Shown here one piece after another: positions 3,808-23,632 of a stretch of DNA of 24,463 nt. A program made the translations under genes and the position numbers. The notes under the pieces were generated by a model. The model worked only from the letters and a program-made list of their open reading frames with translations. It did not search any database and was not told the DNA's origin. Each line of letters begins with the position of its first letter. The first letter of the stretch is position 1. The DNA is from a virus, in the IMG/VR virus record IMGVR_UViG_3300025810_000080, positions 1 to 24,463 of that record, one strand, 5' to 3'.

Positions 3808-4047
3808 ATGTACTTAACATACGACTACCCAAGCCAGTTTAAAACTACCGTAATTGCTACAACCAAACGCACTCTTAAAGCTGTAGCTAAGTTTTTATCT
3901 GATATAGGTGCATCTATTGCAAGAGCACAGCAGATGAGAGCAGACTATTACTTACTGAATAACATGAGTGACAAGCAGCTTAAAGATATTGGTATTACCC
4001 GTGGTGAGATCAAGCAACGGTTCTACGGAACAGACAGTGAAACATAA
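3808..4047 (+). CDS. DUF1127 domain protein
   Basis: A 79-aa protein. Residues about 37-70 match the DUF1127 (YjiS-like) consensus: an Arg-containing helix, then YYLLNNMSDKQLKDIGITRG followed by EI. The key residues L50, M53, L58, D60, I61, G62, I63 and R65 are present. DUF1127 proteins are short and abundant in alpha- and gammaproteobacteria. Some have been linked to RNA turnover, phosphate and carbon metabolism and stress. The N-terminal 36 residues are an amphipathic, Thr/Lys-rich extension with no clear signal peptide. The gene has its own spaced AGGAG site and an upstream gap with a promoter-like element, so it may be expressed independently. A phage copy suggests modulation of a host RNA or metabolic regulator, which is inference. 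Confidence 0.85.
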   Translation: MYLTYDYPSQFKTTVIATTKRTLKAVAKFLSDIGASIARAQQMRADYYLLNNMSDKQLKDIGITRGEIKQRFYGTDSET

Positions 4048-4059
4048 GAAAGTAGTGTA

Positions 4060-4434
4060 ATGGCACGACAACTTACAGAGAATCAAGTTAAGTTCTTAGA
4101 GGTACTCTTCGATGAGGCTGGCGGTGACGTAGTGAAAGCTAAGAAGCTTGCTGGCTACAGCGATAACACGCCTACGAGGCTTATCATTGATTCTCTTAAG
4201 GATGAGATCTTCGAGGGTACTAAGACGTACATGGCACGTATTGGACCTAAGGCAGCTGTAGCGTTTGGTCAGGCTCTTATTGACCCTACAGAGCTAGGTG
4301 TAAAAGAGAAGATGGCTGCAGCCAAAGAAGTACTTGATCGTGCAGGTATTGTAAAGACGGAGCGTGTGGAGGTACAAGCCTCAGGTGGTTTGTTTATCCT
4401 CCCACCTAAAGAGCAAGATGATACGAGTAACTAA
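4060..4434 (+). CDS. Terminase small subunit
   Basis: A 124-aa protein located just upstream of the large terminase. The N-terminus (LTENQVKFLEVLFDEAGGDV followed by VKAKKLAGYSDNTPTR) is the DNA-binding helix-turn-helix arrangement typical of phage small terminases (phage-type TerS). The central helices (YMARIGPKAAVAFGQALIDP) are the likely oligomerisation region. The C-terminus ends in VQASGGLFILPPKEQDD, a motif I recall from many TerS proteins. It would recognise the packaging site and load the large subunit. It starts 12 nt after the DUF1127 gene stop, and its 3' end overlaps the next ORF by 17 nt. Confidence 0.8.
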   Translation: MARQLTENQVKFLEVLFDEAGGDVVKAKKLAGYSDNTPTRLIIDSLKDEIFEGTKTYMARIGPKAAVAFGQALIDPTELGVKEKMAAAKEVLDRAGIVKTERVEVQASGGLFILPPKEQDDTSN

Positions 4435-4870
4435 GACTAAAGAACGTGAGAGCATAGGCTACTGGATGTTGCCTAAGCCTGACTTTAAAGTAAAGAGATG
4501 GGAGAGAATCCCACGATTATCGCCTCAAGTACCATTTGGTTACGAGATAGACCCGGATGATGAGGACTGGCTTAAACCTATTACTAAAGAATTAGAGCTT
4601 TTAGTACTTGCAAAGAAGCATCTAAAGCAGTATAGTTACAGGGAAGTCAGTGCTTGGCTATCAACACAGTCAGGCAGGTATATCTCACACATGGGGTTGA
4701 AAAAGCGTATAGATGTCGAAAGAAAACGTAAGTCACTTGCTGCAATTAAACGCAAGCTTGCCCAGCGGCTCGAAAAAGCGCTCAGGCAGTACGAGATCCT
4801 CGAAAAAGAAAGACTCGGTTACTACACCTACGAAGAAGACGAACAAGACAGCAGTACCCGCCCAAGTTAA
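4418..4870 (+). CDS. HTH and coiled-coil protein preceding large terminase
   Basis: A 150-aa protein that I start at ATG 4418, inside the end of the small terminase gene; the longer open frame would overlap it by 71 nt. Residues 60-98 form a helix-turn-helix-like region (YSYREVSAWLSTQSGRYISH). Residues 102-134 form a basic coiled coil (KRKSLAAIKRKLAQRLEKAL), and the tail is acidic (EEDEQD). Its location between small and large terminase suggests a packaging co-factor or second small-terminase-like DNA binder. I recall orthologues in this position in marine phages, sometimes called small terminase. The last 52 codons are overprinted by the large terminase start in another frame. Confidence 0.65.
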   Translation: MIRVTKTKERESIGYWMLPKPDFKVKRWERIPRLSPQVPFGYEIDPDDEDWLKPITKELELLVLAKKHLKQYSYREVSAWLSTQSGRYISHMGLKKRIDVERKRKSLAAIKRKLAQRLEKALRQYEILEKERLGYYTYEEDEQDSSTRPS

Positions 4871-6293
4871 ACCTGCAGAGTTTGACCCTATTGCTGCTCA
4901 AGAGGTGGTCTTTCAGCCTAACCCTGGGCCTCAGACACAATATCTAGCCTCTGCAGAGCGTGAGGTACTATATGGAGGCGCAGCTGGCGGAGGTAAATCG
5001 TATGCCACACTAGCAGATCCGCTACGTGACTTGAATAACCCAGACTTTAGTGGCCTACTTGTACGTCACACTACAGAAGAACTTAGGGAACTCATACAGA
5101 AGAGCCAAGATCTGTACCCTAAAGCAATACCCGGTATAAAGTGGTCTGAACGCAAATCTCAGTGGACCACACCCCGAGGAGGGCGTCTTTGGATGTCCTA
5201 CCTCGACAAAGACACAGACGTTATGCGCTACCAAGGGCAGGCGTTTAACTACGTAGCCTTCGATGAGCTTACGCAATGGCAGTCACCCTATGGGTGGAAC
5301 TACATGCGGTCTCGATTACGTAGTAGTTCCAAGGAGTTAGGCCTCTATATGAGGGCTACAACCAACCCTGGTGGTCCAGGCCACTCTTGGGTCAAGAAAA
5401 TGTTTATTGATCCTGCCCCGTCTAACACGCCTTTCTGGGCTACAGACATTGAGACAGGTGAAACGCTTACCTACCCTAAGGGTCACAGTAGAGAAGGTGA
5501 TCCACTGTTTAAACGTAGGTTTATACCTGCAAGCCTATTCGATAACCCTCACCTAGCTGAGAGTGGCGACTATGAAGCGATGCTTCTGTCTCTACCTGAG
5601 CATCAAAGGAAGCAACTACTTGAGGGTAACTGGGATGTCAACGAAGGTGCAGCCTTCCCTGAGTTCAACAGGAACATACACGTAGTTGAACCCTTTGATA
5701 TACCAGACTCTTGGACTAAGTTCAGGGCGTGTGACTACGGGTATGGCTCCTTTACGGGGGTTGTGTGGTTAGCAGTAACACCTTCAGAGCAACTCATAGT
5801 TTATAGAGAGTTGTACTGCTCTAAGGTTACAGCTACAGACTTAGCTGATATGATCTTAGAAGCTGAAGCTAGGGATGGTACTATACGCTACGGGGTGCTT
5901 GACTCCTCACTATGGCATAACCGTGGTGATACTGGTCCTTCACTAGCTGAGCAGATGAACATGAAGGGATGTCGCTGGCGTCCTTCAGATAGATCAAAAG
6001 GCTCACGTATATCTGGTAAGAACGAACTACACCGCAGACTACAGGTAGATGAATACACAGAGGAACCTAGGTTAGTATTCTTTTCTACGTGTACCAACAC
6101 AATAGCACAACTACCGTCTATCCCACTGGACAAAAGAAACCCAGAAGATGTAGATACTAATGCAGAAGACCACTTGTATGATGCGTTACGTTATGGTATA
6201 ATGACAAGACCACGTAGTTCTCTATGGGATTACAATCCAGCTAAAGATCAACGTTCTGGATTTCAAGCTTCAGACTCAACATTCGGGTATTAA
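4713..6293 (+). CDS. terL: Terminase large subunit
   Basis: A 526-aa packaging motor (ATPase plus nuclease) that translocates and cuts concatemeric DNA at the portal. Walker A is LYGGAAGGGKS (K95), Walker B is YVAFDE (D184/E185), and TTNPGGPGH at about residue 216 is the coupling motif. The nuclease domain shows the RNase H-fold acidic triad at D341 (ACDYGYGS), D397 (GVLDSS) and D486/D490 (DHLYDAL). The first 50 residues are low-complexity, Lys/Ser/Thr-rich and lie entirely inside the upstream ORF. No other ATG occurs before residue 160, so ATG 4713 is chosen; a later non-ATG start would shorten the overlap. It is followed 3 nt later by the portal gene. Confidence 0.92.
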   Translation: MSKENVSHLLQLNASLPSGSKKRSGSTRSSKKKDSVTTPTKKTNKTAVPAQVKPAEFDPIAAQEVVFQPNPGPQTQYLASAEREVLYGGAAGGGKSYATLADPLRDLNNPDFSGLLVRHTTEELRELIQKSQDLYPKAIPGIKWSERKSQWTTPRGGRLWMSYLDKDTDVMRYQGQAFNYVAFDELTQWQSPYGWNYMRSRLRSSSKELGLYMRATTNPGGPGHSWVKKMFIDPAPSNTPFWATDIETGETLTYPKGHSREGDPLFKRRFIPASLFDNPHLAESGDYEAMLLSLPEHQRKQLLEGNWDVNEGAAFPEFNRNIHVVEPFDIPDSWTKFRACDYGYGSFTGVVWLAVTPSEQLIVYRELYCSKVTATDLADMILEAEARDGTIRYGVLDSSLWHNRGDTGPSLAEQMNMKGCRWRPSDRSKGSRISGKNELHRRLQVDEYTEEPRLVFFSTCTNTIAQLPSIPLDKRNPEDVDTNAEDHLYDALRYGIMTRPRSSLWDYNPAKDQRSGFQASDSTFGY

Positions 6294-6296
6294 AAT

Positions 6297-8420
6297 ATGG
6301 CAGACATTGAAGACGTAAACTTCGACACAGATGAAGTAGTAGCAGCTGAAAACGGCAGCGATAAACTCTTTGAGTCTGTTAATAGCGTAGTTAGCTTCGT
6401 TAAGGATCGCTTCGGACGTGCAGAGGATGCTCGACTTGTAGATGAAGAGCGTTGGTTACGTGCTTATCGTAACTACCGTGGGCTTTACAGTTCAGACGTA
6501 CAGTTCACTGACACAGAGAAGTCACGTGTATTTGTTAAGGTAACTAAGACTAAAACACTTGCAGCCTACGGACAGATCGTAGACGTACTCTTCGGTAACA
6601 ACAAGTTCCCTCTTGCAGTAGACCCTACTGTACTACCAGACGGTGTAGCTGAAGCTGTACATATTAACGTAGATCCTAATGCCGATAAGGCGGGTGAAGG
6701 TGGAAGGGCTGTCACAGAGAACGTAGCAGCCCCTACAGCGCTGTTAGGCGATGACGGTAAGCTACTACCCGGAGAAACGATCATTGATCTACAGGAGCGC
6801 TTAGCGGGTCTCAAGACTAAGTTGTCTCCTGTTAGCGATAAGATCATCGAAGGTGACGGTACTACTCCTACTACAGTGTCATTCCATCCTGCGATGGTAG
6901 CAGCTAAGAAGATGGAGAAGAAGATCCACGATCAGCTTAATGAGAGTGGTGCATCCAAGCATCTGCGCTCAATGGCTTTCGAGATGGCGTTGCTTGGTAC
7001 AGGCGTAATGAAGGGTCCATTCGCTGTAGATAAAGAGTACCCTAGCTGGGGTGAAGACGGTGAGTACTCCCCTCTCGTTAAGACTGTCCCTGAGTGTAAC
7101 CACGTATCTGTATGGAACTTCTACCCTGACCCTGAGTCTACCTCAATGGATGACGCAGAGTACGTAGTTGAGCGTCACAAGATGTCACGCAATCAGCTGC
7201 GCTCTTTGAAGGGACGCCCTTACTTCCGTGATGATTCTATTGAGAACGCTATCGCTCAAAGCCCAGACTACGTGCGTAAGCACTGGGAAATGAAGATGGA
7301 AGACGATGACATCTCTGCTCAGTCTGAGCGCTGGGAAGTTATGGAGTTCTGGGGTTTCGTTGATGTAGACATCCTAGAAGACAATGGCGTTAAGATCCCT
7401 AAAGAGTTACGTGATCTAAACGAAGTAAGCTGTAACATCTGGGTATGTAACGGTGAAGTACTACGTATGGTACTTAACCCCTTCAAACCAGCACGTATTC
7501 CTTACTACTCCACTCCTTACGAGCACAATCCATATAGCTTCTTTGGTGTAGGTATCGCTGAGAATATGGATGATACGCAGACCTTGATGAATGGTTTTAT
7601 GCGTATGGCTATTGACAATGCTGCACTTTCTGGTAACCTTATTATGGAAGTCGATGAGACTAACTTGGTTCCAGGTCAAGACATGAGTGTGTACCCTGGC
7701 AAGATCTTTAGGCGCCAAGGCGGTGCTCCGGGTCAGGCTATCTTTGGTACTAAGTTCCCTAACGTAGCACAAGAGAACATGCAACTCTTTGACAAGGCTC
7801 GTGTCTTGGCTGATGAGAGTACAGGCTTCCCTAGCTTCGCACACGGTCAGACGGGTGTCTCAGGCGTAGGGCGTACAGCTTCAGGTATCTCTATGCTTAT
7901 GTCTGCAGCTAACGGTAGTATCCGTAGTGTAGTTAAGAACGTAGATGACTATCTGCTTGGCCCCCTAGGTAAAGCTTTCTTCTCGTTCAACATGCAGTTT
8001 GACTACGATGAAACTATCAAGGGTGACTTGGAAGTTAAAGCATCAGGTACTGAAAGCTTGATGTCTAACGAGGTACGCTCACAACGTCTGATGCAGTTCT
8101 TGCAGGTAGCGTCTAATCCTAACCTTGCACCATTCGCTAAGATGGATTACGTCATTCGTGAGATCGCTAAGTCTATGGACCTTGACCCAGACAAAGTGAC
8201 TAATTCTATGCAGGACGCTGCTATTCAGGCTGAGCTATTTAAGAAGTTCCAAGAGCAGAACCCACAGCCACCTCAACCGCAAGGCCCAGCGCCAGGACCA
8301 GAAGGTCAAGCACCAGCGGGAGCAAACGTACAAGACACTACAGGATCAGGTGGAGCGCAGATGGGTACAGGCACAGCGCCTCAACCCGGTGAGCAAGGAT
8401 TTAGTGGGAACGTAGCCTAA
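6297..8420 (+). CDS. Portal protein
   Basis: A 707-aa protein in the canonical place just after the large terminase. The N-terminus (residues about 40-100) has ERWLRAYRNYRGLYSSDVQF and KTKTLAAYGQIVDVLFGNNK, typical of podovirus and siphovirus-like portals. It continues with a WNFYPDPE motif and a central SFFGVGIAENM...QTLMNGFMRM segment like the clip/wing region of portal proteins. The C-terminal 65 residues are Pro/Gly/Gln-rich and disordered (NPQPPQPQGPAPGPEGQ). It forms the dodecameric DNA entry ring of the procapsid. About 2 of roughly 33 arginine codons are AGA/AGG by hand count, which is the local baseline. Its stop overlaps the next start by 1 nt. Confidence 0.88.
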   Translation: MADIEDVNFDTDEVVAAENGSDKLFESVNSVVSFVKDRFGRAEDARLVDEERWLRAYRNYRGLYSSDVQFTDTEKSRVFVKVTKTKTLAAYGQIVDVLFGNNKFPLAVDPTVLPDGVAEAVHINVDPNADKAGEGGRAVTENVAAPTALLGDDGKLLPGETIIDLQERLAGLKTKLSPVSDKIIEGDGTTPTTVSFHPAMVAAKKMEKKIHDQLNESGASKHLRSMAFEMALLGTGVMKGPFAVDKEYPSWGEDGEYSPLVKTVPECNHVSVWNFYPDPESTSMDDAEYVVERHKMSRNQLRSLKGRPYFRDDSIENAIAQSPDYVRKHWEMKMEDDDISAQSERWEVMEFWGFVDVDILEDNGVKIPKELRDLNEVSCNIWVCNGEVLRMVLNPFKPARIPYYSTPYEHNPYSFFGVGIAENMDDTQTLMNGFMRMAIDNAALSGNLIMEVDETNLVPGQDMSVYPGKIFRRQGGAPGQAIFGTKFPNVAQENMQLFDKARVLADESTGFPSFAHGQTGVSGVGRTASGISMLMSAANGSIRSVVKNVDDYLLGPLGKAFFSFNMQFDYDETIKGDLEVKASGTESLMSNEVRSQRLMQFLQVASNPNLAPFAKMDYVIREIAKSMDLDPDKVTNSMQDAAIQAELFKKFQEQNPQPPQPQGPAPGPEGQAPAGANVQDTTGSGGAQMGTGTAPQPGEQGFSGNVA

Positions 8421-10369
8421 TGAGTGGTATCACTAGACTGTTAGCTAAAGAGCTTAGCTCTGCGCTGGGCATTACGGATAACCCTAAGTTCAATCCTATG
8501 TTCAAGCAGACTGATGAGGTACTGACTGACGTAGCTGATCCTAGTGACCCTACTGTAGCTAGATTCTATAGCCCTCTTGAGAGTGCTCTTGATGAAGCGC
8601 CTATCGGTAAAGAGGGTACACGTGGAGAGAATGTAGAGGCGTTTGTACGTAAACGTGCTCCTAAGGTCAGTAAAGCTGAGATGGAGTTTCGTGGCTTGGG
8701 CTTAGAGCCTGGTGAGTTATATACAGCGGAGAGCGCTAAGGAGAGCCTAAAGGGTTTAAATATTAAAGCAGTTAAGAGAGGCCGAGAATATAGACTTGAA
8801 CAGAGACAATCTAACTTAAAAGATAGACAGTTAGACTATGTAGAGTTGAGTATTGAAGCAGAGGAGAATCTTAACTATCCTCCTAACTATCATTATGGCT
8901 CTTCTAATTTAGCTCATACTAGATACAGTGTAAGGGAACCAAAGGAACTTAAAGAAAGTGGGAACTCTCTCTTTAGTAGTGATGCGATAGATACAGCTAA
9001 GAAACAAAATGATAAGTCAAGAGAGATACTGGTTTATATGCCTATCAATGACTTCTTAAAGGCTGCTAAAAGTATAGCTGGAGAGCCTCTTGAAGCCTCT
9101 CAATCAAAATTAAAAAACACTATGGGTCTACTAGAAAGCAACACTCCCTTTAGTTCTATACCTTCCCTGACCTTTAAGAACAATGGAGATGGAACAGGTA
9201 AAGTTGTTGGACACGAAGGTAGACATAGAGCTATGGCTATAAACGCATTAGGCTTAAATGAAAGAGGTACATCACAAATACCCGTTATACTAAGAAGTGA
9301 AGCGGGTGCGGGTCCGTCTATTCGCTGGGGCCAACAGAGTAACCCTGATAGCTTTGACTATGTAGATAAGCTTCCTACTAAATTAATATCAGAAGAAGGT
9401 AAGGATACTATATCTATTCCTGCTCGTGCTAGACCTGAAATTGTTAGAAGTGAAAATAAGCCATACATTCTAATTGAAGAACTGCAGTCTGATGTTATAC
9501 AAAACACAGCAGAGAACGCCCAAGAGGCTGCGGCACGACATTCTCAAGTGCTTAAAGAAGATCTTAATATGGAATATAACGCTATTAGGTTTCAAATAAA
9601 CGATAAAGGTAGCGGCTTTCCAGATAAGGTGGTAGATGATATTAAATATTACATAGAGGATGTAGTTATACCTACAATCCTCAATACTAAGCTATCTGAT
9701 TCTGATAAGATAAAGGTTTATAAGGAAGCATTAAAGCGTATAGATGCAGATCAAGATATAATTGAAGGCGTAGGAAAAGCAGGAGATGTATTCCCCACTG
9801 TAAATAGTATACTACAAAGGGAGTTCGATGAGTTTGATGATTTAATGGAAGAAATAGCGGATGACATTAATGACACTGTATCAATTTATGTTCAAACAGT
9901 AATGTCTGTGGTTAGTAAAAAAGATCTCCCAGTACAAAGAATAACAGACACTATACGTATGAGCTTACAGGCTATAATTTCAGACGCAAAAGCAAGAGGT
10001 ATTGATGAGATTGTACTACCTCCCGTAGATAAGCTAGCGTATCAAAGATTTAGATTAGATGAGATACCTTCTAAGATAGCTAAGGGATCAGCCTTTTATA
10101 ATACTTATGTAGCTTCTTACAATAAGGTACTTAAGCAATTAAAGTCTGAATTAGGCAATCAAATTAAGATAGGTAAAAAGCCTTTGAAGTACCGTACAGG
10201 CGCTGGAAAAATTAGCGCACGTACAGCTAAGGGTAAGGTCTTAAAGAAACCACCTAAATATGAAACCGTACAGGGTACGCTCCTAGACATTTCTAACTTG
10301 ACTATTGACCCTAAAAACACTAAGCTACGCTTCAACGAGGGTGGGTTAGTACAGAGGCGAACTAAATGA
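8420..10369 (+). CDS. Multidomain protein with HEGRHR and EELQSD motifs (polyvalent-protein-like)
   Basis: A 649-aa protein between portal and scaffold genes. The N-terminal 110 residues contain FYSPLESALDEAP and APKVSKAEMEFRGLGL, a module I recall at the start of large multidomain phage proteins. Further motifs are SNLAHTRY (H166, R168), VVGHEGRHRAMA (H265 to R270), IRWGQQ, YILIEELQSDV (E353 to D358) and KARGIDEIVLPP. HEGRHRA resembles the GxGRHR core of ParB-like domains, and the EE[IL]QSD block resembles a domain in polyvalent proteins of phages and conjugative elements. The middle (about 8740-10130) is AT-rich: 19 of 25 arginine codons there are AGA/AGG, against about 2 of 33 in the portal gene. 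The last 130 residues are basic. No function is assigned; a virion-packaged effector is plausible. Confidence 0.75.
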   Translation: MSGITRLLAKELSSALGITDNPKFNPMFKQTDEVLTDVADPSDPTVARFYSPLESALDEAPIGKEGTRGENVEAFVRKRAPKVSKAEMEFRGLGLEPGELYTAESAKESLKGLNIKAVKRGREYRLEQRQSNLKDRQLDYVELSIEAEENLNYPPNYHYGSSNLAHTRYSVREPKELKESGNSLFSSDAIDTAKKQNDKSREILVYMPINDFLKAAKSIAGEPLEASQSKLKNTMGLLESNTPFSSIPSLTFKNNGDGTGKVVGHEGRHRAMAINALGLNERGTSQIPVILRSEAGAGPSIRWGQQSNPDSFDYVDKLPTKLISEEGKDTISIPARARPEIVRSENKPYILIEELQSDVIQNTAENAQEAAARHSQVLKEDLNMEYNAIRFQINDKGSGFPDKVVDDIKYYIEDVVIPTILNTKLSDSDKIKVYKEALKRIDADQDIIEGVGKAGDVFPTVNSILQREFDEFDDLMEEIADDINDTVSIYVQTVMSVVSKKDLPVQRITDTIRMSLQAIISDAKARGIDEIVLPPVDKLAYQRFRLDEIPSKIAKGSAFYNTYVASYNKVLKQLKSELGNQIKIGKKPLKYRTGAGKISARTAKGKVLKKPPKYETVQGTLLDISNLTIDPKNTKLRFNEGGLVQRRTK

Positions 10370-10566
10370 ACGGCGCACTAAAGAAGTTAGTCAACGATAA
10401 GCAACTATGGGACGCTTACGTAGAGTACCTAGACAATAAGATAAGCTCTGCACACAAACGACTAGAGCAAGAGAATCAACCTGATAACATGTACAGGGTT
10501 CAAGGCGAGATCGCCTCACTACGTAGATTGAAATATATGAGGGACGAAATCAATGGAAGCCAATGA
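10366..10566 (+). CDS. Small helical conserved protein, function unknown
   Basis: A 66-aa, largely alpha-helical protein. NGALKKLVNDKQLWDAYVEY is followed by a long charged helix (KISSAHKRLEQEN) and a second helix (GEIASLRRLKYMRDEING), suggesting a helical hairpin. It overlaps the upstream gene by 4 nt and the downstream one by 14 nt. I recall similar small proteins between portal and scaffold genes in marine podoviruses. A head-assembly accessory role is possible, but nothing in the sequence proves it. Confidence 0.7.
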   Translation: MNGALKKLVNDKQLWDAYVEYLDNKISSAHKRLEQENQPDNMYRVQGEIASLRRLKYMRDEINGSQ

Positions 10567-11956
10567 AGCTAAACAAATGGAGATGCTACTTCAAGAGGGT
10601 GGTATCGCAGATGACGGTACTACTGTAGACCCTGTAAGTGGGAATGAAGTACCTCCAGGTTCAATGGCAGAAGAGGTACGTGATGACGTTCCTGCTCAGT
10701 TGAGTGAGGGCGAGTACGTTGTACCTGCTGATGTTACACGCTACTACGGTGTTAAGTTCTTTGAGGATCTACGTACTGAAGCCAAGCGTGGCATGGGTCA
10801 GATGGAAGCTGATGGACGTATTGGTGGTGAACCAGTAAGTCAAAATATGGATAACCAAGCTGAGGGTGCTTTAACTCCAGAAGAACTTGCAATGCTACAA
10901 GAGATGGGCATGGCTGTAGGCGGTATGGTTACACCTCCTCCTCAGGCTGTAGGTAACACTGGAGAGTACAACAAAGGCGGTCAAGTATTGTATGCGCAGG
11001 ACGGTGTAGATGTAAGTGCTGCCAGCGCTTCTACGTCAGGCGTCAATCCTTACCAAGCTCAGTTCACACAAGGTATGGGTACAGCCTTTGCTCCAGGTTA
11101 CCTAAGCCAACAGATCATTGAGGCTTCACAAGCCCCACAGTCAAGTATAGTTATGCTTTACTCTCCTGACGGTATTGCTGTGTCTGTGACGCTTCCTGCA
11201 GAGCAAGCTAAGTATGACCAGCTTGTAGCTGAGGGCTACACCACTGAGCCTGTAGCTACAACTACAGAGACTGCAGTACGTACAGGTAATGATGACGATC
11301 CACCACCCCCTGAAACTACGAAGGCGATGACGCCCGACTATACACGTATGACTACAGAAGAGTTAGCTAAAGCGTACTCACAGAACCAAACTGCAATGGC
11401 TATTATGGCAGGTATGGCTGCTATTAATCCTATCTTTGGTGCGTTTGGTGTTTGGGCTACTAACAATACTAAGAAGAAAATCATTGAAGCAGGGTATAAG
11501 CCGCCTGAAGGTGGTAGCATTTTCGACTTGTCTATTAATGACGTAATAGGTAAAGTAAAAGATGTACTTGGTCTATCTGATGAAGAGACCGCAACGGTTG
11601 TAGCTCAAGTAAGTGGTGGAGAACCAACTACTACTACTACGGATGGGCCTACGTTTACAAAGCAGGATAGTAGTACAGCTGCACCCAATGAAGCATCAAG
11701 GGTGCTTGGTACATCAGAAGATGATAGTACTACAGATAGTCTAGCTAATACTGTAGCCGCAGCCAATGCAGCAGCAGCAGGGACAGGCCAAGTCAGTGGG
11801 CAAGTAATCAATGCTGGAACTGCTAATCAGCAAGTAACAGGTGCAACACAAGCAGATATAGATTACCTAACATCTGCAGCAGCGGGTGCTGAAGGAGGGC
11901 TTATGAGCAAGGCAGCTTTAAATAAAAAAGCTAAGAAAAAGAGAAATAAGAAGTAA
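10553..11956 (+). CDS. Conserved phage protein, putative virion-associated
   Basis: A 467-aa protein. The N-terminal block carries DDVPAQLSEGEYVVPADVTR, YYGVKFFEDLR, and GMGQMEADGRIGGEPV, a module I recall from many marine phage proteins placed near head and tail genes. Residues about 270-330 contain two hydrophobic, Ala/Gly-rich stretches (MAIMAGMAAINPIFGAFGVW) that could be membrane-interacting. The remaining C-terminal part is low-complexity, Thr/Ser/Asp/Ala-rich, and ends in a Lys-rich tail. The membrane-like segment and disordered tails suit an injected or internal virion protein, which is inference. The ATG at 10553 overlaps the previous gene by 14 nt. Confidence 0.7.
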   Translation: MEANEAKQMEMLLQEGGIADDGTTVDPVSGNEVPPGSMAEEVRDDVPAQLSEGEYVVPADVTRYYGVKFFEDLRTEAKRGMGQMEADGRIGGEPVSQNMDNQAEGALTPEELAMLQEMGMAVGGMVTPPPQAVGNTGEYNKGGQVLYAQDGVDVSAASASTSGVNPYQAQFTQGMGTAFAPGYLSQQIIEASQAPQSSIVMLYSPDGIAVSVTLPAEQAKYDQLVAEGYTTEPVATTTETAVRTGNDDDPPPPETTKAMTPDYTRMTTEELAKAYSQNQTAMAIMAGMAAINPIFGAFGVWATNNTKKKIIEAGYKPPEGGSIFDLSINDVIGKVKDVLGLSDEETATVVAQVSGGEPTTTTTDGPTFTKQDSSTAAPNEASRVLGTSEDDSTTDSLANTVAAANAAAAGTGQVSGQVINAGTANQQVTGATQADIDYLTSAAAGAEGGLMSKAALNKKAKKKRNKK

Positions 11957-21625: not shown

Positions 21626-23632
21626 ATGTCTACAAGAGTAAGACAAGCTTTTCAAAGTGCAGCAGGTGCTGCTGGTGGTGGTGGCCTTGATGTTGATGAG
21701 GTGTTCAGCACTTATTTGTATGAGGGCAATAGCTCTACACAAACGATCACCAACGGCATTGATCTTGATGGCGAAGGTGGTTTGGCTTGGCTGAAAGCCC
21801 GCAGTGGTACGGTTTCTCATAAACTTCTTGATACTGAGGTTGGCTTAACAAAAGCACGGTCAACTGACGCAACAGCTGCAGATATTACTTACAACCCAAG
21901 TTTCCCATGGATTTCTAGCTTTAATACGGATGGCTTTACGCTAGGTTATAACTCTCAAACAAACTTCAGCGGCACAACCTACACCTCTTGGACATTCCGC
22001 AAAGCCCCTAAGTTCTTTGATGTGCAAACTTGGAGCGGGGACTCAGCATCGGATAGGGCAATCTCTCATAACCTTGGCTGTGTTCCGGGTATGATTATAG
22101 TTAAAAGAACAAATGCCTCTGAAGACTGGGGTGTTTGGCATAGATCAGTACACTCAAATACATCTAAGGTTTTGTACTTAAACCAAAATTTTAATCTACA
22201 AACATCTACTCATATCTTTGGCGCAACGAATCCAACGGACTCTAACTTCTATGTAGGAAACCATCCTGTATCTAATAACAGTGGCGACACCTACGTAGCC
22301 TACCTCTTCGCCCACAACGATGGTGACGGTGATTTCGGCCCTGATGGTGATGCTGATATTATCAAGTGTGGGAGTTGGACAGCCAGTTCAACTGCCGCTG
22401 TTCCAGTAGATTTAGGGTTTGAACCACAGTGGGTTCTCATAAAAAGAGCACCTGGAACACAAGATTGGCTGTTATGGGATACCATGCGAGGGATGCCTGT
22501 TGACACAGGGCAACCATATCTTATTCCCAACTCGTCTGGCGCAGAAAGTACAGACACATATTACTTATCTCCTACACCTACAGGGTTCACTGTCAGACAA
22601 AATGCTCTAGGTAGTAATGGTGACACCTACATCTACATCGCCATTCGCCGTGGCCCTATGGCTGTGCCTGAGAGTGCGAGTGAGGTGTTTGATGTTCAAG
22701 AAGTAACGGGTAATGGGACAGCTAGGACATTTACTACAGGTACAACAGTAGACTTTGTAATGTCAAAGGCAAGTAATGTTACCTATGGTTGGCGTGGAAC
22801 CGATAGGGTTCGTGGAAGCGGATTTCCATTTTTAATGGATAGCAATAGTAGTGAGAGCAATAACTACACAATAGGCCATTGGTTAGATGCAACTGATGGA
22901 TTTGAAATAATATCAGGGTCTAATCCTTATAATGCATCAGGCTATGATTATACCCATTGGGCTTGGACTAGAGCGCCTAACTTTTTTGATATTGTTGCTT
23001 GGGAAGGCACAGGGGCTTACACGACGACAATCAATCATAATTTAGGTGTTACGCCTGAGATGATTTGGGTAAAGAATAGAAGTTTAAGCGAGGATTGGGC
23101 GGTCTACCACAAAGCTATTGGAACATATTATGGCCCGTCAGGAACGACAGGTGGGGTACTACAATTAGATGATAATTCTGGTGTAAGTGATACAGGTATA
23201 AACTCTACTAGCTATTGGAGAGATCAAGCACCAGATGCAGATGCATTTTATTTAGGAAACCAAAATAGAGTAAATGGATCAGGTTATAATTATGCTGCTT
23301 ACTTATTTGCTTCACTAGATGGTGTTTCAAAAGTTGGGAGTTATACAGGAACAGGCTCAGATCAGACTATAGATTGTGGGTTTAGCAATGGTGCTTCTTT
23401 TGTCTTAGTTAAAAGATATGATGTTGGTTCTCAATCTTGGCACGTTTGGGATAGCGCAAGGGGGATAACCGCTGGTAACGATAGCACACATTTCCTTGAT
23501 TTAAGTCAGCAAGAAAACACATCTAGCAACTACATTGATCCTCACAGTTCAGGTTTTACGTTAAAGTCAAGTTTTACAGCCACCAACGCTAGTGGTGGCA
23601 GTTACATTTTTTATGCAATCGCAGCAATATAA
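21626..23632 (+). CDS. Repeat-containing fibre/tailspike-type protein (DUF7483-like)
   Basis: A 668-aa beta-rich protein. Four related segments begin with FFDVQTWSGD, IIKCGSWTA, FFDIVAWEG and VSKVGSYTG, and each continues to an I(S/N)HNLG-like turn (HNLGCVP, DLGFEPQ, HNLGVTP, CGFSNGA), an I/V-V/L-K-R motif and a W-x-V/L-W/Y-H/D end. This corresponds to the DUF7483 repeat pattern that I recall. Diverged half-copies lie at the N-terminus (AWLKARSGTVSHKLLDTEVG) and at about residue 376. It ends in SGGSYIFYAIAAI. The first half is normal phage composition, and from about 22660 onward it is AT-richer. It is likely a second adhesin or accessory spike exposed on the virion. Confidence 0.75.
   Translation: MSTRVRQAFQSAAGAAGGGGLDVDEVFSTYLYEGNSSTQTITNGIDLDGEGGLAWLKARSGTVSHKLLDTEVGLTKARSTDATAADITYNPSFPWISSFNTDGFTLGYNSQTNFSGTTYTSWTFRKAPKFFDVQTWSGDSASDRAISHNLGCVPGMIIVKRTNASEDWGVWHRSVHSNTSKVLYLNQNFNLQTSTHIFGATNPTDSNFYVGNHPVSNNSGDTYVAYLFAHNDGDGDFGPDGDADIIKCGSWTASSTAAVPVDLGFEPQWVLIKRAPGTQDWLLWDTMRGMPVDTGQPYLIPNSSGAESTDTYYLSPTPTGFTVRQNALGSNGDTYIYIAIRRGPMAVPESASEVFDVQEVTGNGTARTFTTGTTVDFVMSKASNVTYGWRGTDRVRGSGFPFLMDSNSSESNNYTIGHWLDATDGFEIISGSNPYNASGYDYTHWAWTRAPNFFDIVAWEGTGAYTTTINHNLGVTPEMIWVKNRSLSEDWAVYHKAIGTYYGPSGTTGGVLQLDDNSGVSDTGINSTSYWRDQAPDADAFYLGNQNRVNGSGYNYAAYLFASLDGVSKVGSYTGTGSDQTIDCGFSNGASFVLVKRYDVGSQSWHVWDSARGITAGNDSTHFLDLSQQENTSSNYIDPHSSGFTLKSSFTATNASGGSYIFYAIAAI

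What the first reader, a model, noticed from the sequence alone, without database searches (positions are those of the whole stretch)
8420..10369. Polyvalent-like effector gene with foreign codon usage in the head operon
The 649-aa product combines HEGRHRA (H265-R270, like the GRHR core of ParB-type domains) and an EELQSD block (353-358). The latter resembles multidomain phage and plasmid polyvalent proteins that travel with DNA into a recipient. It is not an ordinary head protein, yet it sits between portal and scaffold. Its middle uses AGA/AGG for 19 of 25 arginines, against about 2 of 33 in the portal gene, while both ends look native. This suggests a module swapped into a resident gene, possibly an injected anti-defence or host-takeover factor.
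Basis: partly seen in the sequence, partly recalled or inferred. Interest (0 to 1): 0.72.

Follow-up and report, generated by a model that had tools for sequence, protein, structure and literature searches.

The report
Swappable effector cassette beside phage portal
An abundant kind of marine phage carries, right next to its DNA-portal gene, an exchangeable gene slot whose occupant here looks like a two-part protein made to be carried into the bacterium, joining a ParB-like part to an unnamed phage domain that resembles acetyltransferases in predicted shape.

Summary
In detail: a 649-aa gene after the portal, HEGRHRA at 265-271, EELQSD at 353-358, AGA/AGG 19 of 26 arginines in codons 106-600 against 2 of 30 in the portal, and the lowest-GC 1.5 kb of the window. 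The phage is HMO-2011-like. The gene fills an accessory slot: absent from three isolates checked and from 66 of 117 portal rows, and filled by three different occupants on one portal protein. Residues ~174-345 are a mobile ParB/sulfiredoxin-like module (3 of 56 complete slot genes), elsewhere solo, fused to a wall hydrolase or ART-PolyVal, or inside very large proteins. The rest is a divergent member of a large unnamed 'EIQSD' phage domain family (hhalign 97%, E 2e-11), whose predicted structure resembles GNAT acetyltransferases (all 50 listed matches, four of them by recall of what the entry is), though the acetyl-CoA loop signature is not seen at its place. The AT-rich body is present in 28 of 28 testable relatives, so composition does not date a recent swap; DNA mosaicism does show swapping. 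Most likely an injected two-domain effector; injection and activity are inferred.

The parts
8420..10369 (+). Slot gene, 649 aa: EIQSD-type core with a nested ParB/Srx-like module
   Evidence: slot comparison
8420..8479 (+). Codons 1-20 (MSGITRLLAKELSSALGITD), kept even where the whole body is replaced (L039); candidate packaging signal or recombination anchor
8564..8734 (+). FYSP...KVSKAEMEFRGL region (residues 49-105), matches the N-terminal part of the EIQSD family
   Evidence: hhalign prob 97.3, E 2.4e-11; prob 95.1, E 3.1e-8; controls at most 0.5
8735..10219 (+). AT-rich body, codons 106-600, GC 0.368, AGA/AGG 19 of 26 arginines
   Evidence: low GC shared by 28 of 28 relatives
8888..8935 (+). 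YHYGSSNLAHTRYSVR (residues 157-172), counterpart of HFDEPNxLAHxRxxDR in the family
8939..9454 (+). Inserted ParB/sulfiredoxin-like module (residues ~174-345), in the hairpin before EELQSD
   Evidence: Absent from 53 of 56 complete slot genes; fold; profiles
9212..9232 (+). HEGRHRA motif (residues 265-271); H, G, R, H, R invariant in 39 module sequences
9476..9493 (+). EELQSD motif (residues 353-358), present in 56 of 56 complete slot genes
9515..9910 (+). Helical bundle (residues 366-497), between the EELQSD strand and the next core helix
   Evidence: Predicted structure
9941..10198 (+). Second half of the core (residues 508-593), counterpart of HELALKRMLRYAAENGYDxIAW in the family
   Evidence: Global hhalign; model
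10340..10369 (+). Conserved tail GGLVQRRTK and stop; its DNA carries an AGAGG ribosome-site-like stretch before the next ATG
   Evidence: DNA homology to L039 resumes at 10340
6297..8420 (+). Portal gene (SU10-type)
   Evidence: Pfam SU10_portal E 2.6e-26
10366..10566 (+). 66-aa gene whose counterparts follow the portal directly in phages without a slot gene
10553..11956 (+). Second variable gene (467 aa here, up to 1869 aa in relatives), a second cargo slot; some relatives carry wall hydrolase or lysozyme domains

Best explanation
The gene is the occupant of an accessory cargo slot next to the portal of HMO-2011-type podoviruses. It encodes a polyvalent-type protein that is probably packaged in the head and delivered with the DNA. 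SHOWN by comparison: the slot can be empty or hold different genes on the same portal protein; the body is exchanged between conserved ends; a ParB/Srx-like module has been inserted into a hairpin of an EIQSD-family core; the module recurs in phage proteins that also carry wall hydrolase or ART domains, and together with the EIQSD domain in single large proteins. PREDICTED by structure: the module has the ParB/Srx fold with the H-R pair and without sulfiredoxin's cysteine (the roles of these residues are recalled); the core is GNAT-like in shape, with conserved polar residues at strand ends (Y140, E142, H158, H166, R168, R172, E353, E354, Q356, S357, D358, Q361 in this protein). INFERRED: the protein enters the cell; the core transfers a group to a host target, or binds one, and the ParB-like part binds or hydrolyses a nucleotide or nicks DNA, so that the pair blunts an early host response or redirects host machinery; exchange reflects host-by-host selection.
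For: L001 (core plus ParB module), L231 (core without it) and L039 (unrelated 327-aa gene) have identical portal proteins in the columns of the tree. Window against L039: 98.4% DNA identity over 3958-8479, none to 10340, then 92.8% to 13391. Core to EIQSD family: prob 97.3, E 2.4e-11 over the N-terminal part; prob 89.6, E 1.9e-6 over the LAH..EELQSD part alone; 16 shuffled, 2 reversed and 1 unrelated profile against the whole core gave at most 0.5. ParB/Srx: Foldseek rows 1-9 in PDB are PadC and sulfiredoxins; profile hits SbnI E 0.01 and a PHROG named 'ParB-like partition nuclease' E 1.6e-5 in 2 of 39 members. GNAT-like: all 50 listed rows for the family model (46 by title, 4 by recall; 11 are SSAT entries) and about ten of 50 rows for this protein's own model. 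Viral structures: 5 matches at E up to 1e-3, and slightly weaker ones named 'Large polyvalent protein associated domain' and 'ParB-like nuclease domain'. Context: module plus ART-PolyVal E 3.4e-9 (L142) and plus Hydrolase_2 E 2.2e-9 (L122); the L039 cargo recurs at 61% in a protein with Hydrolase_2, L070.
Against: No virion proteomics was seen for this group (none was sought beyond the search and passages of one paper). In SU10 the identified ejection proteins are gp20-24 while the portal is gp6 (PMC9509320, passages), so they are not the genes beside the portal. The GNAT P-loop signature is not visible at its place: no slot gene of 56 has the GRxxGY that follows the motif in 103 of 126 family motifs, and [QR]xxGx[GA] occurs within 200 residues after the motif in only 3 of 56. 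Fold matches are weak one by one (no Foldseek E below 1e-3 in PDB; best Z 8.6, where 7-8 can be chance by the tool's own note). In the Pfam scan of the module, ParB_N (0.0093) and PFIN (0.025) score no better than unrelated families. No Pfam, PHROG or PADLOC family matches the protein itself usefully. Isolates lack the gene, so these phages can do without it.
Confidence: 0.55

Rival explanations
1. The protein is a late host-manipulation or superinfection-exclusion protein that acts in the cell in which it is made and is never injected; the slot lies in the late operon only for expression.
For: The gene overlaps its neighbours' starts and stops in the structural operon; SU10's identified ejection proteins are encoded elsewhere; no direct packaging evidence.
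Against: Its module recurs in proteins with a peptidoglycan hydrolase or ART-PolyVal, and cargo is shared with the next gene, relatives of which carry wall hydrolase or lysozyme, the pattern that Iyer et al. read as injected (PMC5512222: abstract, sections 11, 15, 29 and found passages).
Confidence: 0.2
2. The core is a catalytically dead GNAT-like scaffold, used to bind or to carry exchangeable modules; the activity lies only in the insert.
For: The acetyl-CoA loop signature is missing and a helical bundle sits there; inserts occur at two positions of the core (ParB module after residue 172; another module after about residue 113 in L043 and relatives).
Against: 56 of 56 complete slot genes keep EELQSD and LAHxRYSxR, and polar residues at the strand ends are conserved in both the slot family and the distant family; 53 of 56 have no ParB module, so the core must do something by itself.
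Confidence: 0.25
3. It is a head or portal accessory protein with a structural or assembly role.
For: Position between portal and head genes.
Against: It is absent from isolates CRP-2, HMO-2011 and CRP-9 and from 66 of 117 portal rows, and an unrelated sequence can take its place (L039).
Confidence: 0.08
4. The AT-rich middle marks a recent foreign insertion into a native gene of this phage.
For: GC and arginine codons change sharply near codon 106.
Against: The same GC step is in 28 of 28 relatives with a portal and a usable body; the one branch-specific insert (174-345) is less AT-rich than the core.
Confidence: 0.05

Closest known systems
Polyvalent proteins (Iyer et al. 2017, PMC5512222)
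   Same: Phage-encoded, beside virion genes of a portal-terminase phage; combines two predicted domains of different kinds; its module recurs with ART-PolyVal and wall hydrolase domains.
   Different: Short (649 aa), in a slot beside the portal that is emptied or refilled; no Pfam model matched either of its domains usefully; packaging not shown.
DdrB-like ParB domains (phage P1 DdrB type, PMC5512222 section 15)
   Same: ParB/Srx-like module in phage proteins, solo or in large proteins, near virion genes.
   Different: The Pfam hits of the 39 module sequences did not include a ddrB-ParB model (that Pfam holds one is recalled); motif HxGRHR; here nested inside another domain.
SbnI / SerK free serine kinases and sulfiredoxin (ParB/Srx superfamily)
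   Same: Closest solved sequence relative (SbnI, E 0.01) and closest solved folds (Srx Z 5.5, SerK Z 5.3); shared G-x-HR core.
   Different: Srx's catalytic cysteine position is arginine in GRHR (motif alignment recalled); low similarity.
GNAT acetyltransferases (for example SpNatD, AtaT, SSAT)
   Same: Predicted topology of the EIQSD family model matches GNATs in all 50 listed rows (46 by title, 4 by recall).
   Different: No [QR]xxGx[GA] loop at the usual place in the slot family; a helical stretch inserted there; no sequence match to solved GNATs at E up to 1.
PHROG 7348 ('endolysin')
   Same: 34 of 35 EIQSD-family segments match it.
   Different: The name may come from fused lysozyme domains (inference, not followed up); P0001 itself does not match it at E up to 0.1.

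Membership tests
Polyvalent proteins | Several domains of different kinds in one polypeptide | tested here: met
   ParB/Srx-like module inside an EIQSD-family, GNAT-like core; functions predicted only
Polyvalent proteins | Domains recur in other multidomain phage proteins with known polyvalent domains | tested here: met
   Module with ART-PolyVal in L142 and with Hydrolase_2 in L122; module and EIQSD domain in one protein in L137 and others
Polyvalent proteins | Encoded by a phage with portal-terminase packaging, near virion genes | tested here: met
   TerL and portal directly upstream
Polyvalent proteins | Carried into the host with the DNA | not testable with these tools
   Needs virion proteomics or an ejection assay
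Polyvalent proteins | Match of this protein to a named polyvalent-type Pfam domain (LPD, ddrB-ParB, ART-PolyVal) | tested here: not met
   Only DUF5805 at E 0.35
ParB/Srx superfamily | ParB/Srx fold | tested here: met
   Foldseek top nine rows PadC and Srx, prob 0.75-0.95 but E 0.18-0.38; Srx Z 5.5, SerK Z 5.3; profile hits to SbnI and a ParB PHROG. Each weak, all agree; a solved structure is lacking
ParB/Srx superfamily | Conserved arginine of the nucleotide pocket (G-x-x-R / HR) | tested here: met
   H, G, R, H, R of HxGRHR invariant in 39 of 39
DdrB-like ParB | Match to the ddrB-ParB model | tested here: inconclusive
   No such hit among 39 members at E up to 1; HMMER filters can hide weak matches
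GNAT acetyltransferases | GNAT fold | tested here: inconclusive
   All 50 listed VIA rows for the family model are GNATs, best Z 8.6; for this protein Naa60 and others Z up to 6.9, below helix-bundle rows; Foldseek E above 0.1
GNAT acetyltransferases | Acetyl-CoA loop [QR]xxGx[GA] after strand 4 | tested here: not met
   This protein has none after EELQSD; 3 of 56 slot genes have one within 200 residues (189 residues on) and 27 of 126 family motifs within 40. Therefore not filed as an acetyltransferase
EIQSD-type phage domain family (unnamed) | FYSx N-terminal part, LAHxR strand, E[EV][IL]QSDxxQ motif | tested here: met
   hhalign on two separate parts, with controls
EIQSD-type phage domain family (unnamed) | W-H and GRxxGY after the motif | tested here: not met
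   0 of 56 slot genes; 103 of 126 motifs in 124 family ORFs. The slot genes are a divergent branch

The most novel reading that the evidence does not exclude
HMO-2011-type phages hold a portal-adjacent 'cargo bay': a locus whose occupant is exchanged between conserved ends and even shuttles with the neighbouring gene, loading alternative injected effectors. The occupant here belongs to a very widespread but unnamed phage domain family (EIQSD) that is a diverged GNAT-fold enzyme class, with a ParB/Srx nucleotide-binding domain nested in one of its hairpins.
Probability: 0.4. Interest if true: 0.78.

Novelty: new variant of a known kind. Interest (0 to 1): 0.6.

Why it matters
HMO-2011-type phages are described as a dominant, broadly distributed marine group (PMC9038755: start of the abstract in the listing, and passages). 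A slot whose content differs between phages with the same portal protein is a natural experiment: the alleles can be compared on one background to ask what early-infection effectors do. Naming the EIQSD family and giving it a likely fold would annotate a domain found in viral contigs and in contigs from many bacterial phyla, for which the 35 members scanned had no credible Pfam or NCBIfam match, and gives residues to mutate.

Tried and rejected
Direct family scans of the protein (Pfam, PHROGs, PADLOC) gave nothing useful. Tblastn in 50,697 phage records found one weak hit, a solo module in jumbo phage NCTB; a core relative (L109) found none at E up to 0.01, and a module relative (L140) found NCTB again. 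An EIQSD-family segment (L137) found one record, Dolichospermum phage Dfl-JY45, at 24%, and only 4 viral loci. A single family member against the core profile gave probability 4%; the family alignment was needed. Bestrophin matches to residues 366-498 (Z 9, the top rows) were rejected as helix-bundle similarity. The idea that the tail GGLVQRRTK is a packaging tag was weakened: its DNA holds a ribosome-site-like AGAGG for the next gene, so shared tails may be translation signals or recombination anchors. Recent foreign origin from composition was rejected. The promoter-like sites found were fewer than in shuffles and the terminator-like ones within one standard deviation. A search for 'EIQSD' in the paper library found two unrelated papers (listing only); 'polyvalent protein' with 'GNAT' and 'phage' found five (listing; passages seen in two of them, PMC5512222 and PMC7824862), and I saw no description of this family there.

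Limits of the counts. In the portal tree 8 of 180 portal rows had no readable slot and were left out; L006 is labelled without insert although its contig ends inside the insert, so the four changes counted for the insert may be one too many; L122 counts as 'no slot gene' although its next gene carries the module. The tree is FastTree only. Many loci are near-copies of each other, and some portals are only partly present. The controls were run against the whole core profile, not against its second part alone.
Full report
OBSERVATION. The gene 8420-10369 encodes 649 aa. The middle is AT-rich: codons 106-600 have GC 0.368 against 0.481 in the portal, and no stretch of that length outside it is as low. 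AGA/AGG make up 19 of 26 arginines there against 2 of 30 in the portal and 58 of 262 in 24 other window genes. The effect is real, though other genes of the window also lean to AGA/AGG (15 of 23 in 21626-23632).

WHAT PHAGE. The window is a virus record of 24,463 bases with an SU10-type portal and adaptor. Its portal is 78% identical to that of Roseobacter phage CRP-2 and 65% to that of Puniceispirillum phage HMO-2011, so I place it with the HMO-2011-type podoviruses.

THE SLOT. In CRP-2, HMO-2011 and CRP-9 the portal is followed directly by a small gene (65, 58 and 62 aa), then a 647-, 762- or 1395-aa gene, a scaffold-like gene and the coat gene; there is no slot gene. Tblastn found the core in no record of the phage collection. 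Among 117 portal rows from held loci, 66 have no slot gene, 41 are labelled core without the ParB module, 4 core with it, 5 a solo ParB-type module, and 1 (L039) holds an unrelated gene (8 unreadable rows dropped; identical or contained portals with the same label counted once; L006 mislabelled, see limits). On the portal tree these labels need 9 changes, slot presence 2. L001, L231 and L039 have identical portals in the tree's columns and three different occupants. Window against L039: 98.4% DNA identity up to codon 20 of the slot gene, nothing until codon 641, then 92.8% onward. L241 and L201 are 98.4% identical over 5.3 kb and then carry different inserts. Exchange at this locus is therefore shown at DNA level, subject to the usual caution about metagenomic assemblies.

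COMPOSITION RE-READ. In 28 of 28 relatives, and in the window itself, the body (residues 346-600) is lower in GC than the portal of the same contig (0.29-0.41 against 0.43-0.53; of 34 rows, 5 were too short or lacked the portal and were left out). The AT-rich body is thus an old property of the cassette. The discrete insert (residues ~174-345) is less extreme than its surroundings. The AGA/AGG excess is not shared (0 of 5 in L041, 0 of 8 in L011).

THE INSERTED MODULE. It is present in 3 of 56 distinct complete slot genes, this one included, and lies between LAHTRYSVR and YILIEELQSD. A scan found 61 loci with relatives. In phages with a 67%-identical portal it fills the slot alone (L129, L130, L133, L134) or with a second module behind it (L131); in L132 the same solo gene follows a portal frame split by a stop. 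In L122 it sits in the next gene with a Hydrolase_2 domain (E 2.2e-9), in L142 with ART-PolyVal (E 3.4e-9), and elsewhere inside proteins of about 1200-2800 aa, many cut by the locus ends. In 39 aligned members F-L and H-x-G-R-H-R are invariant. Evidence for the ParB/Srx fold is weak item by item but consistent: Foldseek ranks PadC and sulfiredoxins first, Srx Z 5.5 and SerK Z 5.3, profile to SbnI E 0.01, and PHROG 26754 'ParB-like partition nuclease' 1.6e-5 for 2 of 39 members. In Pfam single members reach ParB_N 0.0093 and PFIN 0.025, no better than several unrelated families in the same table.

THE CORE. In the 80 loci that I examined, the motif occurs 81 times in ORFs of 349-3429 aa, 76 of them with an xHxRxxxR block within 45 residues before it. 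The slot-gene profile matches this family at probability 97.3, E 2.4e-11, over the FYSP part, and separately over the LAH...EELQSD part at 89.6, E 1.9e-6; 16 column-shuffled, 2 reversed and 1 unrelated profile gave at most 0.5. A global alignment also pairs TDSIRMSLQAIIADAKGKGVDEIVLPP with the family's ELALKRMLRYAAENGYDxIAW. Y-x-E, H, LAH-x-R, R, EE-x-QSD and the following Q are invariant in 17 slot sequences and invariant or at least 90% conserved in 35 family sequences. The slot genes lack the family's W-H and GRxxGY (0 of 56; 103 of 126 motifs in the family). The 35 members scanned had no credible Pfam or NCBIfam match; PHROG 7348, called 'endolysin', matches 34 of 35. In a collection of bacterial and archaeal genomes 106 of 220 pattern-matched stretches were confirmed, the 80 listed coming from many phyla.

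FOLD OF THE CORE. The model of this protein (mean pLDDT 80.8, pTM 0.63) gave helix-bundle matches first and then about ten rows of GNAT-type acetyltransferases spanning residues 42-646, up to Z 6.9. The model of a compact family member (L258, pLDDT 83.4) gave GNATs in all 50 listed rows: 46 by their titles, 4 (BH1408 twice, VCH_CASS6, an SSU-processome chain) by recall; 11 are SSAT entries; best SpNatD Z 8.6, rmsd 3.1, 109 residues. Foldseek alone was not significant, and the tool warns that Z 7-8 is common among unmatched models. I read this as GNAT-like topology with two insertions: the ParB module in a hairpin, and a helical stretch where the acetyl-CoA loop would be. Since the loop signature is absent here (3 of 56 slot genes have one within 200 residues of the motif), I do not file it as an acetyltransferase. 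Viral structure matches include proteins named for polyvalent and ParB-like domains.

A SECOND CARGO SLOT. The L039 cargo recurs at 61-63% identity in genes downstream of the small gene in phages without a slot gene (L070, L095) and more distantly in others, CRP-9 included. That downstream gene ranges from about 400 to 1869 aa; of eight long ones scanned, L070 has Hydrolase_2, L104 a phage lysozyme with a sub-threshold ART-PolyVal match, L132 a sub-threshold LPD23, L102 a Phage_L5_gp82 match and four nothing. Cargo thus moves between two neighbouring genes, one of which can carry wall-cutting domains, and this is my main reason to think that both are delivered.

MECHANISM. Most likely the protein is packaged and delivered with the DNA; the EIQSD core acts on, or binds, a host target, and the ParB/Srx part contributes nucleotide-dependent activity. 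Iyer et al. predict such roles for polyvalent proteins and for ParB-like domains in them, and describe two RimI-like GNAT families there (PMC5512222: abstract, sections 11, 15 and 29, and found passages); a jumbo-phage review mentions a phage GNAT that acts on host RNA polymerase (PMC7824862, passages). Delivery, targets and catalysis are not shown here.

VERDICT. Observation confirmed; interpretation partly supported. The find is a new variant of a known kind, polyvalent effectors, with two points that I did not see described in the papers searched: an exchangeable portal-side slot, and a GNAT-like reading of the EIQSD domain.

Noticed in passing
10553-11956 and its relatives: The gene after the 66-aa gene is a second variable cargo gene (about 400-1869 aa in relatives) with a conserved first ~100 residues; some relatives carry wall hydrolase or lysozyme domains.
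   Followed up: partly
L039:4463-5443; L070:6579-9866; L095; L376: The cargo that replaces the slot gene in L039 recurs in the downstream gene of slot-less phages, so cargo moves between two neighbouring genes.
   Followed up: yes
L043, L185-L187, L198, L199, L201; L131:3824-4876: Another module of about 90-130 aa (RxEGYADPxAKKKKT...) is inserted after residue ~113 of the slot gene, and occurs behind the solo ParB-type module in L131; no Pfam match in L043 and L131. From memory it could be ART-like.
   Followed up: partly
PHROG 7348: A family called 'endolysin' matches 34 of 35 EIQSD-domain segments; the name may be taken from fused lysozyme domains.
   Followed up: no
L132:1713-3881: The portal frame is split in two by a stop in this contig (sequence error or real).
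   Followed up: no
10340-10369: The conserved C-terminal codons of otherwise unrelated slot genes contain an AGAGG or AAAGG-like stretch before the start of the next small gene.
   Followed up: yes
21626-23632: Fibre-like gene with 15 of 23 arginines as AGA/AGG and GC 0.431, so the codon signal of the finding is not unique in the window.
   Followed up: no
LT598654.1 (L119:5001-5300): Jumbo phage NCTB has a small ORF that is a solo HEGRHR module (about 35% identical); the listed gene there starts later than the similarity.
   Followed up: partly
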